A stretch of DNA of 48,382 bases from Cyclobacteriaceae bacterium (lineage in GTDB: Bacteria; Bacteroidota; Bacteroidia; Cytophagales; Cyclobacteriaceae), in NCBI GenBank assembly GCA_947458585.1, contig CANGYY010000021.1, positions 1-48,382 of the forward strand. The letters run 5' to 3'. This document shows, one piece after another, positions 24,328 to 43,521 of the stretch; the stretch's first letter is position 1, and every line of letters begins with the position of its first letter. The translations under genes were made by a program, and so were the position numbers. The notes beneath the pieces were generated by a model. The model saw only the letters and a program-made list of their open reading frames with translations. It was not told the origin of the DNA and ran no database searches.

Positions 24328-24370
24328 CTACTTGGTACTTGGTACATTGTACTTGGGGACATTGTACACT
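24328..24370. repeat. Degenerate 7-base repeat array B2
   Basis: Six units of the type GTACTTG or GTACATT run from 24328 to 24370, with one 8-base unit near the end (24356-24363). The units match array A at 12688-12708. The array lies between the convergent HAD gene and ccmF. Confidence 0.75.
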
Positions 24371-32299: not shown

Positions 32300-32330
32300 T
32301 TTGGGGGATTCAAGGGATTTGGTAGCTTCG
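32300..32330 (+). promoter_or_regulatory. Bacteroidota-type promoter of the small barrel gene
   Basis: TTTG at 32300-32303 and TAGCTTCG at 32323-32330 are 19 bases apart; the -7 box has one mismatch to TAnnTTTG. The ATG of the following gene is 14 bases downstream. Confidence 0.6.
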
Positions 32331-32344
32331 CAAAAAATGATGCG

Positions 32345-32821
32345 ATGAAAAATCTTCTGCTAGTCACCTTTTTTCTTTTTGGTTCGGTTACTATCCTTCA
32401 GGCACAAGAGCAGGGAGATTCCCGACTTCATGTCTTGGGACAGTACGGGTTACGCATGGATGAACCCGGAATCGGTTTTGGTTGGGAGTATTTTTTCGCA
32501 CCTCAATTTGGACTGATGCCAAGCTACACGCAGATTTTCCCAGCCGTGGGAAGAGCCAGTAATTTCAGCGCTGACCTGCGTTATTACCTCTCCAAAGAAA
32601 AGTCGCAGGTTTATGTGGTAACAGGCTATAGCTTAACTTCAGAAAATCCGCAACCTGGGGCTGCCGGTACCAAGCGAAATCTAAGTGGTGCGAATGTAGG
32701 GGTGGGAGCTGTAGTTCCACTTACAGACTGGGTGGGTCTGAGTACTGAATTCAAATTTCAAAGCCAAGGCATCCAACAAATCTACTTTCGATTTGGTCTC
32801 GATTTTCCACTCGGAAAATAA
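32345..32821 (+). CDS. Small outer-membrane beta-barrel protein
   Basis: The 158-residue protein has a signal peptide (cleavage near LQAQ) and alternating hydrophobic strands ending in the aromatic-rich IYFRFGLDFPLGK, as expected for an 8-stranded barrel of the OmpA/OmpW type. No loop or ligand motif tells a role. It has its own promoter and lies behind the plug-domain gene, with convergent array C downstream. Confidence 0.72.
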   Translation: MKNLLLVTFFLFGSVTILQAQEQGDSRLHVLGQYGLRMDEPGIGFGWEYFFAPQFGLMPSYTQIFPAVGRASNFSADLRYYLSKEKSQVYVVTGYSLTSENPQPGAAGTKRNLSGANVGVGAVVPLTDWVGLSTEFKFQSQGIQQIYFRFGLDFPLGK

Positions 32822-32842
32822 GGGATGAAGTTCAATTAAGTG

Positions 32843-32995
32843 AGCTGTGGACAATGGGCTGAAACGGTCCACAGTTGACGGTCGACGGACCACAGTCAAT
32901 TGTGTTCGGTATATGAAAACGTATTTAAATTTAGATTCTCTACTTGATACCAAACGAATCGGCTGTCGACAGTGGGCTGTGAGCTGTTGACTGAT
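32843..32995. repeat. Degenerate 7-base repeat array C
   Basis: Nine units in strict register fill 32843-32905 (for example ACGGTCC, ACAGTTG), and another eight fill 32940-32995 (for example CTACTTG, GGCTGTC). About 35 AT-rich bases separate the two blocks. The second block begins with a unit resembling arrays A and B and continues with units resembling the first block. The array fills the gap between the convergent barrel and rhomboid genes. Confidence 0.78.
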
Positions 32996-33000
32996 TGCAA

Positions 33001-33915
33001 TTACTTCTTGCTGTATTCAAACAGCTTTCTTTTTTCTTCTTTCGTCAATCCTTCGTAGCCCTTTTCGGCAATTTTATCCAAAATTTTATCCACCTCTTCC
33101 TGACTTAAGGATTCCTTAGCGACCGACTGCGTTTGCTCAGTCTTTGCAGATCGAGATCCAGTGGAAGTTGGTCTTCGGTAGCTCACTTTAGGAGCTCTCC
33201 TGCTGAACAGGTTTTCGAAAAACATCCCAATTTTTTGAATAGGCATGCCCAAGTCCCAACCTTTTCGCAACAAGAAGATGTAGCCAAAGCCAAGCATCGC
33301 CCCTCCCAGATGGGCAATTTCTCCCCCTGCATTTTCCCCAATCGAGTTGGCAAAAGATAGGAGGATATAGAATGCAGCGATGTAGACAATTTTGACAGGC
33401 CCTAGTAGAAAAAGGAAAAAAGTTGTTTGCGGGGCAAGTGTAGCCGCACCTACCACCACCGCAAATACTCCTGCGCTGGCTCCCAGCATGAGGGAACTGT
33501 CTACATTCTGGGAGAAATAAGGGGCAACATTGTAGATCAAAACATAAAATCCAGCCCCAAAAAGCCCCCCCAAGAGGTATAGGTTGGTTAGTCGCCTACT
33601 TCCGATGTATTGATGGACGAGCTGTCCGAAATAGTAGAGGAAAAGCAGGTTGAACAAAATATGGAAAAGCCCTTCATGCAAGAACATGTAGGTAAAGGGA
33701 GCCCAAGGCTGGGTAGCAAGCGTGGAAACGGAAGCGGGCATCATGATCCATTCCATCCCCTCTTTGTACAACGCTCCATAGCCACTGAGTGTCAAGAATA
33801 CCCGCGCAATGAGCAGTACAAAAAAGGCAATCAGATTGATCGCCAACAACTTGTACAAGCTATTGTCTTGTCGATTGAAGGCGTTTTTTAAATTATCCCA
33901 AAAGCTTGAATACAT
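33001..33915 (-). CDS. Rhomboid-family intramembrane serine protease, copy 2 of the pair
   Basis: This 304-residue membrane protease has about six helices, the catalytic serine in GASAG (about residue 150) and histidine in AHLGG. A conserved HILFN segment of the second helix helps form the oxyanion site. A cytosolic C-terminal tail of about 100 residues is basic, then acidic. The frame opens at a GTG (33966) inside the preceding gene; the ATG at 33915 fits, one base after the stop of the upstream rhomboid gene. It cleaves transmembrane substrates, unknown here. Confidence 0.9.
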   Translation of the reverse strand: MYSSFWDNLKNAFNRQDNSLYKLLAINLIAFFVLLIARVFLTLSGYGALYKEGMEWIMMPASVSTLATQPWAPFTYMFLHEGLFHILFNLLFLYYFGQLVHQYIGSRRLTNLYLLGGLFGAGFYVLIYNVAPYFSQNVDSSLMLGASAGVFAVVVGAATLAPQTTFFLFLLGPVKIVYIAAFYILLSFANSIGENAGGEIAHLGGAMLGFGYIFLLRKGWDLGMPIQKIGMFFENLFSRRAPKVSYRRPTSTGSRSAKTEQTQSVAKESLSQEEVDKILDKIAEKGYEGLTKEEKRKLFEYSKK

Positions 33916-33916
33916 C

Positions 33917-34708
33917 TTAGTAGAAGCTATTTCTATTTCTTTTCCACACGTATACCAGAATGGCACCTACCACGAGGCCACTCAAGTGTGCAAAGTGGGC
34001 GACGTTATCGGAAGGACTGGTAATTAATATATTGTACACCGTGTACAGACCATAGAACGTGACCATGTACTTGGCCTTAATCGGAATAGGAGGGAAAAGC
34101 AAAAAGAGTTGGGTATTCGGGAAGAGCATCCCAAAAGCAATCAAGATCCCGAAAAGTGCGCCCGAGGCACCGACCATGGGTTGGTTGACTTGCAGCTGCA
34201 AAATGGTATTCAAGGTTTGCTCCGCACGCTGGATATTCATGGGATCTTCTGGATTCCTGCTGTATTGATCCACAAAGTCAAATACTTCAGGTGTAAAATA
34301 ACCTCTGTTTTCAATCACCAAACGGTTGAAATATTCAGGATCTGGATCTGCTTCAAAGGCCAGTACTTTTTCCTCTAAGGTGCGGTATTGAACCAAGGTA
34401 TACCCGGAGTAGAGCACACCAGCTCCCATCCCACAGACCATCCAGAGAATGAATAGCTTCTTAGGTCCCAAAAACTGTTCCAGCAGTGGCCCGAAGATCA
34501 GGAGACCGAACAAGTTGCTGAAGAGGTGCCAGAAGTCGGCATGCATAAACATGTAGGAGAGAAATTGGAAGGGCTTGAAGTACGAGCTTTGGATATTGTA
34601 CAGGGCAAACCATTCATTCAGGGGCGGGAATACAAAATTGGCCACCAAAAAAACAGCGATGTTGATCAGCAACAGATTTTTAACGACCGGGGTGATGTTT
34701 CTAAACAT
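33917..34708 (-). CDS. Rhomboid-family intramembrane serine protease, copy 1 of the pair
   Basis: The 263-residue protein has the rhomboid signature: HLFSN in helix 2, catalytic serine in GASGA, and histidine in HFAHLSG. A loop of about 70 residues rich in acidic and aromatic residues (about 110-180) is inserted between helices, which is longer than in typical family members. Start and stop are each one base from the neighbours (34710 and 33915), a tight operon with mutL upstream and a second rhomboid downstream. The pair is diverged, not recent. Confidence 0.9.
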   Translation of the reverse strand: MFRNITPVVKNLLLINIAVFLVANFVFPPLNEWFALYNIQSSYFKPFQFLSYMFMHADFWHLFSNLFGLLIFGPLLEQFLGPKKLFILWMVCGMGAGVLYSGYTLVQYRTLEEKVLAFEADPDPEYFNRLVIENRGYFTPEVFDFVDQYSRNPEDPMNIQRAEQTLNTILQLQVNQPMVGASGALFGILIAFGMLFPNTQLFLLFPPIPIKAKYMVTFYGLYTVYNILITSPSDNVAHFAHLSGLVVGAILVYVWKRNRNSFY

Positions 34709-42691: not shown

Positions 42692-43483
42692 TTAAATTCC
42701 CATATCCTTGGCAAGCAGCTCAGCGAGGTCTACCACCTGAACATCGGCTTCCCGATTCTTATTTTTTACGCCATCGGTCATCATCGTCAGGCAAAAAGGG
42801 CAACCCACGGCAATGGTGGACGCTCCTGTAGCCAAGGCCTCTTCCGTGCGCTCGATATTGATGTCTTTTTTTCCTGGTTCGGGCTCTTTAAACATTTGTG
42901 CGCCCCCTGCTCCACAGCAAAGTCCTTTGGTACGGCAGCGCTTCATTTCTACTAGCTCCACATCCAAGGCTTTAATTACCTCCCGTGGCGCTTCATAGAC
43001 TCCGTTGGCTCGCCCCAGGTAACAGGAATCGTGGAAGGTGATCTTTTTACCTTTAAACTCCCCTCCTCCTTGAAGGGTCACTTTCCCTTCGTTGATGAGC
43101 TGCTGTAGAAACTCAGAGTGGTGAATCACTTCGTAGTTGCCTCCCAAGGCAGGGTATTCGTTTTTGATGGTATTGAAACAATGCGGACAGGCGGTCACCA
43201 CTTTTTTGACTTCGTAGGCATTCATCACTTGGATGTTGGCCACTGCCTGCATTTGGAAAAGAAATTCATTGCCTGCTCGTCGAGCGGGATCACCTGTACA
43301 GGCTTCTTCTGGACCCAGCACGGCAAAACTCATCCCTACTTTATTTAATATTTTGACAAAAGCCTGGGTCACCGCTTTGTAGCGCTCATCAAAGGATCCT
43401 GCACAACCCACCCAAAAGAGAACCTCAGGTGTTTGGGAGTTGGCGGCCATTTCGGCCATGGTAGGAACTTGGTAGGTAGACAT
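42692..43483 (-). CDS. CCG-domain Fe-S oxidoreductase subunit (GlpC/HdrB/LutA type)
   Basis: The 263-residue soluble protein has two cysteine-rich CCG-type domains: CPHCFNTIKNEYP and LCCGAGG (C-x30-CCG-like), with CVGCP-like GCPFC near the end and WVGCAGSFDERY at the start. Such subunits hold a non-cubane 4Fe-4S cluster and transfer electrons. It is downstream of the membrane Fe-S protein (43543-44877), separated by a heptamer array but clearly a pair. Electron donor and acceptor are not known. Confidence 0.88.
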   Translation of the reverse strand: MSTYQVPTMAEMAANSQTPEVLFWVGCAGSFDERYKAVTQAFVKILNKVGMSFAVLGPEEACTGDPARRAGNEFLFQMQAVANIQVMNAYEVKKVVTACPHCFNTIKNEYPALGGNYEVIHHSEFLQQLINEGKVTLQGGGEFKGKKITFHDSCYLGRANGVYEAPREVIKALDVELVEMKRCRTKGLCCGAGGAQMFKEPEPGKKDINIERTEEALATGASTIAVGCPFCLTMMTDGVKNKNREADVQVVDLAELLAKDMGI

Positions 43484-43486
43484 GTT

Positions 43487-43521
43487 TTAGATACTAGACG
43501 TTAGATACAAGATGCAAGACA
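43487..43521. repeat. Degenerate 7-base repeat array D
   Basis: Five perfect-length units fill 43487-43521, including TTAGATA twice (43487 and 43501) and CAAGATG. Position 4 is G and position 5 is A in every unit. The array lies between two co-oriented genes of one apparent operon, 20 bases after the upstream stop. Confidence 0.75.

What the first reader, a model, noticed from the sequence alone, without database searches (positions are those of the whole stretch)
32843..32995. Seventeen degenerate 7-base units in register between two convergent genes
The gap between the barrel gene and the rhomboid gene consists of 7-mers in strict register (32843-32905 and 32940-32995). The units share a pattern but are not identical, which separates this from a microsatellite and from CRISPR. 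The same 7-base period recurs at three other places in this window. Heptamer repeats (STRR) are known in cyanobacteria; I know of no named counterpart in Bacteroidota. It may be a replication- or structure-derived element, or a terminator/insulator for convergent genes.
Basis: seen in the sequence. Interest (0 to 1): 0.72.

Follow-up and report, generated by a model that had tools for sequence, protein, structure and literature searches.

The report
Heptamer-armed foldback repeat between convergent genes
The 7-base units are the two mirrored ends of a short dispersed repeat, and in this bacterial genus the same kind of 7-base mirrored ends also frame a family of small genes of unknown function, which gives these puzzling repeats a candidate partner protein.

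Summary
The heptamers are real and far above chance, but not a free-standing array. Window 32867-32991 (minus) is a full-length copy of a 125-127 bp dispersed repeat whose ends are inverted arms of four heptamers around an AT-rich core (121 bits). Model matches: 13 in this draft genome, up to 58 in a congener (palindromic copies can count twice); 36 of 60 congeneric genomes have at least one. In each unit G1, A5 and C6 are conserved (2.9% variation, 22% at other arm positions, 28% in the core). The arms of a copy do not co-vary, against a maintained RNA hairpin or terminator. Arrays of this genome lie in 17 convergent, 14 tandem and 0 divergent gaps. Unexpectedly, genes of the 23S_rRNA_IVP family (PF05635) are framed by inverted arms at 13 of 14 sites, with period 7 at 10 of 14, each site with its own heptamer; control genes 5 and 2 of 223. 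I read the window element as a gene-less relative of such IVP cassettes; that step is likely, not proven. Period-7 arrays, often inverted, occur in many phyla.

The parts
32867..32991 (-). full-length copy of the 125-127 bp dispersed foldback repeat ('type II' in this report)
   Evidence: search with model R1: 121.1 bits, model 1-127 of 127
32962..32991 (-). 5' arm: GTCAACA GCTCACA GCCCACT GTCGACA GC
   Evidence: sequence; alignments A1, A2; arm analysis
32897..32961 (-). AT-rich core of the element, homologous to cores of other copies
   Evidence: alignment A2; core mean non-consensus 28%
32867..32896 (-). 3' arm, inverted: the + strand reads GTCCACA GTTGACG GTCGACG GACCACA GT
32826..32862 (-). 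extra heptamers and tail (GCCCATTGTCCACAGCTCACTTAATTGAACTTCA on the minus strand) that resemble the array-plus-tail part of a separate 145-bp MITE ('type I') of the genus
   Evidence: seen by eye against copies; not scored
32345..32821 (+). upstream convergent gene, 158 aa, beta-barrel-like
   Evidence: PF13505 E=1.1e-4, 22.8 bits, below the curated cut-off of 28.7
33001..33966 (-). convergent rhomboid protease gene
   Evidence: PF01694 80.6 bits, PF20216 45.6 bits
12602..12711 (+). second, degraded copy of the same element family, between convergent polyprenyl synthetase and aspartokinase/homoserine dehydrogenase genes
   Evidence: 45.6 bits, E=2.5e-8; neighbours
24329..24355 (+). solo heptamer array of the TACTTGG family, between convergent HAD-hydrolase and cytochrome c assembly (CcmF-like) genes
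   Evidence: TRF period 7; best match of the family pattern; neighbours
43485..43520 (.). degenerate heptamers (AGATACT, AGACGTT, AGATACA, AGATGCA) in a tandem gap
   Evidence: period-7 score 0.49 at 43482, sequence

Best explanation
SHOWN: the heptamers are the terminal inverted arms of one copy of a 125-127 bp non-coding dispersed repeat in a genus that is most likely Algoriphagus. The copies share arms and core, differ strongly in number between species, and lie in gaps that favour convergent genes in this genome. Each heptamer is conserved at G1, A5 and C6 while the other positions and the core drift. The arms do not evolve as a base-paired stem. SHOWN, separately: in the same genus genes of the four-helix-bundle 23S_rRNA_IVP family (PF05635) are framed by inverted arms, mostly of period 7, at nearly every site examined, each site with its own heptamer family; one site (L490) has arms of the window's own GTC family. 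INFERRED: the window element is a solo, gene-less relative of a GTC-armed IVP cassette, as a MITE is of its parent element. A nucleic-acid-binding protein, best candidate IVP itself, reads the arms unit by unit, 7 nt per contact; this is why the period and the G...AC phase persist while the rest drifts and whole families are replaced. Copies spread by an unknown route without target-site duplications and survive where insertion is tolerated, such as between convergent genes. Any effect on transcription of barrel or rhomboid is incidental.
For: Discrete element: 121 bits full length; matches at E<=1e-4 in 36 of 60 congeneric genomes, 13/33/58 in G000/G160/G174 (some palindromic copies counted on both strands); 55 of 59 non-overlapping copies in fetched loci are at least 110 of 127 positions long (one copy, L396/L429, held twice). 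Phase constraint 2.9% v 22.5% v 28%, p=6e-9 and 1.5e-11, same in 30 G174 copies. No arm co-variation. Turnover at the same gap and at other loci. Placement 17/14/0. IVP: 55 loci fall into 14 sites; with one locus per site, inverted arms in 13 of 14 (cross-site pairs 8.8%), period 7 in 10 of 14; controls 5 and 2 of 223 genes. Two sites (L272, L295) came from GTC-seeded loci; without them 11 of 12 and 8 of 12. The only IVP gene in the random stretches (L221) lies 28 bp from their strongest period-7 array. GTC-armed cassette L490: element positions 1-67 match its 3' end (E=6e-7) and 84-127 its 5' end (E=1e-4), collinear, with the gene between; an 18-nt core match in the right place, p=0.012.
Against: Only one half of the consensus core gives a (weak) match to the IVP cassette; it is not significant against the whole interior (p=0.13), the other half gives none at its end (p=0.72), and the window copy's own core does not reach significance (p=0.11). 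So descent from an IVP cassette rests mainly on arms of one family. In 120 loci with GTC arrays from many phyla only 3 hold an IVP gene found by my genus-built profile, 2 of them next to the array (15 and 66 bp). 4 of 14 IVP sites do not reach the period-7 threshold. No binding activity of IVP is shown. At the 19-locus IVP site arms of one locus match each other no better than arms of other loci (p=0.31). The phase constraint was measured on copies found with a model whose seeds came from GTC-pattern or gap loci, so some ascertainment is possible; outside the genus no clear phase effect is seen. Absence from divergent gaps does not carry over to other genomes of the genus (7 of 40, counted).
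Confidence: 0.55

Rival explanations
1. Bidirectional intrinsic terminator or insulator: the inverted arms form a stem in RNA from either convergent gene and stop transcription.
For: RNA fold of the gap z=-2.75, 1 of 200 shuffles as stable; convergent gaps enriched in this genome and, less, in the 120-locus set (26 of 96 gaps with arrays against 81 of 527 without, p=0.008); the GTC-sense arm is met first after stop codons in 20 of 27 (own) and 54 of 78 (wide) cases, at a median of 16 and 9 nt; 19 of 52 copies are followed by four or more T.
Against: No co-variation, and arms of the same copy pair worse than arms of other copies; no long consensus stem; T-run of 5 or more after 7 of 52 copies, none at the window copy; several orthologous gaps have no element, some of 1-6 bp; DNA fold not significant. 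For paired arms the sense-first rule follows from the palindrome itself.
Confidence: 0.15
2. Slippage product: period-7 tandem repeats arise by replication slippage whose step is set by a polymerase contact of about 7 nt, then decay; dispersal is by recombination.
For: Heptamers dominate over other periods that are not multiples of 3 in loci of many phyla with diverse sequences and have no universal core (redundancy-reduced sets); L115/L116 gaps differ by 112 = 16x7 bp and L115/L120 by 7 bp. The polymerase idea is Mrazek 2007 as told in PMC4679880 (introduction read).
Against: Does not explain the fixed 127-bp architecture with a shared core, inverted partners (80 of 256 arrays, direct 52, 1 in shuffled flanks), the G...AC phase constraint or the IVP framing.
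Confidence: 0.15
3. Ordinary MITE mobilised by a DDE transposase that recognises the arms.
For: Short, non-coding, multicopy, inverted termini; a neighbouring family (type I, 145-146 bp) in the same genomes has flanking direct repeats of 7 bp or more in 8 of 14 copies (3% in mismatched controls) and carries GTC heptamers inside.
Against: Type II shows no duplication: 1 of 18 isolated copies with 6 bp or more. No autonomous parent was seen, but genomes were not searched for genes between type II arms; for type I ends a 12-mer search of three genomes showed no transposon-sized pair by eye.
Confidence: 0.25
4. REP-like element moved by a RAYT/Y1 transposase.
For: Palindromic, intergenic, clustered copies; Y1_Tnp in 53 of 60 genomes.
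Against: G161 and G184 (100% complete) have 8 and 9 matches and no Y1_Tnp, G196 (78% complete) 20 matches and none; G186 has 13 Y1_Tnp and 1 match.
Confidence: 0.05

Closest known systems
Cyanobacterial STRR (recalled), GGGNATC repeats of Xanthomonas/Nostoc (PMC4692102, abstract read) and TAACTGA repeats (PMC4679880, abstract, introduction and one results section read)
   Same: intergenic 7-nt repeats, dispersed, patchy; GGGNATC repeats are likewise under-represented between divergent ORFs and lie near stop codons
   Different: those are described as direct arrays of one heptamer; here degenerate heptamers are the inverted ends of a 127-bp element with a core, and many heptamer families share the inverted layout
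BrickBuilt MITE of Porphyromonas gingivalis (PMC4596501, abstract and passages read)
   Same: Bacteroidota, intergenic MITE-like repeat built around tandem units
   Different: 23-nt units inside the element with separate small inverted ends; here 7-nt units are the inverted ends
Intervening sequences of 23S rRNA genes that encode IVP (S23) proteins (recalled)
   Same: IVP gene between inverted arms
   Different: the cassettes examined are outside rRNA (Rfam: 0 matches in 15 loci) and their arms are mostly heptamer arrays
Drosophila foldback elements (recalled)
   Same: terminal inverted repeats made of short tandem repeats, gene-less and gene-bearing forms
   Different: bacterial, about 125-490 bp, 7-nt period, no known homology
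REP/BIME elements with RAYT (recalled)
   Same: palindromic intergenic repeats in clusters
   Different: longer, heptamer-built, not tied to Y1_Tnp

Membership tests
MITE | short, non-coding, multicopy with terminal inverted repeats | tested here: met
   125-127 bp, inverted arms, tens of matches in several genomes
MITE | target-site duplication | tested here: not met
   1 of 18 isolated copies with 6 bp or more, null 1.25%; met for the separate type I family
MITE | parent transposon with the same ends | tested here: inconclusive
   GTC-armed IVP cassette L490 is a candidate parent; IVP is not a known transposase
STRR / heptanucleotide simple repeats | direct tandem heptamers, dispersed in intergenic DNA | tested here: inconclusive
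   period 7 and dispersal met; the arms are inverted and part of a fixed element
REP/RAYT | presence tied to a Y1 transposase | tested here: not met
Intrinsic terminator | stem kept by selection and followed by a U-tract | tested here: not met
   (T-run of 5 or more after 7 of 52 copies, 4 or more after 19)
CRISPR | repeats separated by unrelated spacers of constant length | tested here: not met
   contiguous degenerate 7-mers in the sequence
23S rRNA intervening sequence | inside an rRNA gene | tested here: not met
   15 IVP loci without any Rfam match; the window copy lies between protein genes
Known RNA family | match to an Rfam model | tested here: not met
   window 32300-33600: one match, E=0.39, below gathering and outside the element

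The most novel reading that the evidence does not exclude
Intergenic heptamer arrays in many bacterial phyla are the arms, present or past, of one class of selfish foldback cassette whose protein is the four-helix-bundle 23S_rRNA_IVP family. The arm sequence is free to change, the 7-nt period and inverted layout are not, because IVP oligomers read the arms 7 nt at a time. The window's element would be a gene-less member.
Probability: 0.35. Interest if true: 0.88.

Novelty: new variant of a known kind. Interest (0 to 1): 0.72.

Why it matters
The preference of bacterial genomes for 7-nt repeats has been noted without a settled cause. A link between inverted heptamer arms and the abundant but unexplained IVP family gives both a testable partner: a protein family with solved structures (2gsc, 2rld) and a defined nucleic-acid ligand. 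It would also show a cassette in which period and symmetry are conserved while the sequence is not.

Tried and rejected
Universal heptamer core: aligning the heptamer consensus of all arrays gave no more information than permuted heptamers in the redundancy-reduced sets (3.38 v 3.39 bits, n=57; 3.38 v 3.66, n=14); with all 140 it was slightly higher (3.63 v 3.37, sd 0.11; best of 25 permutations 3.63). Rejected.

G...AC phase constraint across phyla: units next to the seed pattern in the 120-locus set show no clear phase effect; the claim is limited to the genus.

Global autocorrelation at lag 7 in noncoding DNA: no excess. Absence from divergent gaps: true for 31 gaps of the own genome, partly for the 120-locus set (10 of 96 array gaps divergent, 55 of 226 other gaps of 80 bp or more), not for other genomes of the genus (7 of 40, pooled by me after dropping loci listed twice). 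Gene calls are longest-ORF calls, noisy in high-GC genomes: 118 of 280 arrays of the 120-locus set fell inside called ORFs.

Statistics first obtained on 30 IVP loci (28 with arrays) overstate independence: 29 of them are orthologues of two sites, so the 14-site count replaced them. An idea that these were rRNA genes was tested and dropped.

RNA-hairpin selection, REP/RAYT and intrinsic terminator were tested and not supported. Rfam gave nothing.

Full report
Place. The window is contig C21 (48,382 b) of a 2.78-Mb, 113-contig draft genome, 82.6% complete. The genus is most likely Algoriphagus: a contig titled Algoriphagus sp. (L230) is 92% identical over 1,078 nt to a same-genus genome (G163, locus L177).

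Observation. The gap 32822-33000 lies between a 158-aa barrel-like gene (+) and a rhomboid gene (-). The same GTC heptamers occur 67 times in the genome against 0 for the reversed pattern. A second heptamer family, TACTTGG, occurs 57 times against 0. Further families are seen in stretches of the genome.

The orthologous gap. The rhomboid was searched in 41 genomes of the family and 60 of the genus, with 30 loci returned each time; the gap was examined in 39 of these loci, 6 of which had no convergent barrel gene (heptamers judged by eye). The nearest relatives (rhomboid 97% and 94% identical) have a 36-bp gap without heptamers. Most of those at 82-93% have the element, versions of it, or stubs (one, L118, is empty; one, L119, could not be resolved); L115 and L116 differ by 112 bp, 16 units of 7. 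In two more distant congeners the same gap holds other heptamers (L133, L136). So the site gains, remodels and loses heptamer elements.

The element. Alignment of copies shows a 127-position repeat with heptamer arms and a shared core. A covariance model (R1; effectively sequence only, 3 pairs) finds the window copy at 32867-32991, minus strand, 121 bits, full length. At E<=1e-4 it has 13 matches in this genome, 33 in G160, 58 in G174, and at least one in 36 of 60 congeneric genomes (stricter filters used by the tool; because the element is palindromic some copies are counted on both strands). In G174 two clusters have five copies in a row with 9- or 10-nt spacers. Isolated copies have no target-site duplication (1 of 18). 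A separate family in the same genomes, a 145-146 bp MITE with ATTATCCGC ends, has flanking direct repeats of 7-11 bp in 8 of 14 copies measured (33 loci looked at); it carries GTC heptamers inside, and one such 21-mer recurs unchanged in 23 places of G160 (copies).

Constraint. Over 52 copies the arms are conserved at phases 1, 5 and 6 of every heptamer (G, A, C: 2.9% non-consensus) against 22.5% at the other arm phases and 28% in the core. The 30 copies of G174, found with the model, give the same picture; the model's seeds came from GTC-pattern and gap loci, so some ascertainment is possible. Exchange between units could help to keep shared bases, but units 1, 3 and 4 of the 5' arm keep their own fourth base in 79-92% of copies, which argues against exchange as the whole cause. 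Base pairing is not what is kept: on 17 copies the pair counts do not exceed shuffles, and on 52 copies the two arms of a copy match worse than arms of different copies (10.6 v 11.46, sd 0.32; G174 alone 11.53 v 12.71, sd 0.41).

Placement. Of 47 array loci of the own genome, 3 at contig edges and 6 inside called ORFs were dropped. The rest fall into 31 gaps: 17 convergent, 14 tandem, 0 divergent; the 364 gaps of a 448-kb sample of the genome (window included) are 62/238/64 (p=7e-6 for convergent, 0.005 for divergent). In other genomes of the genus I count 12/21/7 of 40 after removing loci listed twice: the convergent excess is weaker and divergent gaps are not avoided.

Beyond the genus. Away from the seed arrays (500 bp masked; 758 kb left) these stretches hold 108 period-7 arrays in 58 of 120 loci, against 36 for period 8, 31 for 9, 26 for 6, and 1 to 3 for 5, 10, 11 and 13. 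This set is enriched for heptamer-rich genomes by design. In 1.25 Mb of stretches taken at fixed places plus the window the figure is 17 for period 7, 10 for 12 and 15, at most 6 for the rest. Of 256 arrays of the 120 loci that could be tested (very long ones and those near locus ends left out), 80 have an inverted partner within 300 bp and 52 a direct one, against 1 each in shuffled flanks. The heptamers share no universal core once redundancy is removed.

The IVP link. In G160 and G174 two stretches with several copies of the element contain a 116-aa ORF that is a 23S_rRNA_IVP protein (PF05635, 96-99 bits; TIGR02436 four helix bundle). IVP genes are present in 57 of 60 genomes of the genus and in 0 of 14 control genomes. 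Thirty IVP loci chosen by protein score alone have a period-7 array within 600 bp in 28 cases; rhomboid loci 9 of 58; random windows 7 of 300. But 29 of these 30 are orthologues of two sites (19 and 10 loci); none of the 15 IVP loci tested is in rRNA. With 20 more IVP places taken from the capped listing (7 genomes) and five found otherwise, 55 loci fall into 14 sites. One locus per site: inverted arms in 13 of 14, against 8.8% of cross-site pairs; period 7 in 10 of 14, other periods in 2 of 14. Control genes of 100-200 aa: 5 and 2 of 223. Leaving out L272 and L295, which came from GTC-seeded loci, gives 11 of 12 and 8 of 12. Each site has its own heptamer family, and at one site group (15 loci) species differ in family (AGTATCA, AGAGTCA, others; by eye) while gene and inverted layout stay in most. 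In the 120-locus set only 3 loci hold an IVP gene found by a profile built from this genus, 2 of them beside the GTC array (15 and 66 bp); so most GTC arrays there have no IVP gene at hand.

From cassette to solo. L490 (G130) is a 489-bp cassette: GTC arm, IVP gene, inverted GTC arm. The first 67 positions of the repeat match its 3' end and positions 84-127 its 5' end, in order, the gene being absent (E=6e-7 and 1e-4, largely arms). Outside the arms one 18-nt match of the consensus core lies in the right place (p=0.012 against the adjacent 50 nt, 0.13 against the whole interior); the other core half has none (p=0.72), and the window copy's own core gives p=0.11. The derivation is therefore plausible, not shown.

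Reading. I take the window feature to be a gene-less member of a class of heptamer-armed foldback elements, selfish or neutral, whose arms are read unit by unit by a nucleic-acid-binding protein; IVP is the best candidate on present evidence. Steps shown: element, arms, phase constraint, lack of pairing constraint, turnover, IVP framing. Steps inferred: descent from an IVP cassette, binding by IVP, lack of host function.

Literature. Heptanucleotide repeats are known to be over-represented (PMC4679880, introduction read, citing Mrazek 2007, which is not held), and GGGNATC repeats have a similar placement (PMC4692102, abstract read). Searches for heptamer repeats in Bacteroidetes, for six repeat strings, for foldback/MITE and for IVP with heptamers or inverted repeats showed no description of this element or of the IVP link. 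The library holds open-access papers only, and searches listed only the first 12-20 of more papers.

Noticed in passing
L376-L395 (G160), L166-L174 (G151, G082): 145-146 bp MITE with ATTATCCGC inverted ends, AT-rich flanking direct repeats and internal GTC heptamers; its array 21-mer recurs unchanged in 23 places of G160, so probably recently active.
   Followed up: partly
L426, L427 (G174:C56, C20): Five direct copies of the 127-bp repeat in a row with 9- or 10-nt T-rich spacers, identical (GTTATTTTA) within one cluster.
   Followed up: partly
L348 (G160) against L072 (own C14): The same gap holds about 965 bp with an IVP gene and four repeat copies in one species, and 76 bp with an unrelated heptamer family (GAAATAC) in its close relative.
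   Followed up: partly
L178 (G093:C295) 2288-2640: 60-bp tandem repeat made of GTC heptamers plus a conserved stretch, followed by CACTTAC heptamers.
   Followed up: no
120 loci: Period 8 is the second commonest short period that is not a multiple of 3 (36 arrays in 19 loci).
   Followed up: no
L129 (G082), downstream of rhomboid: 12-bp tandem repeat CTGTATTTCTAC, several copies, where most relatives have the convergent barrel gene.
   Followed up: no
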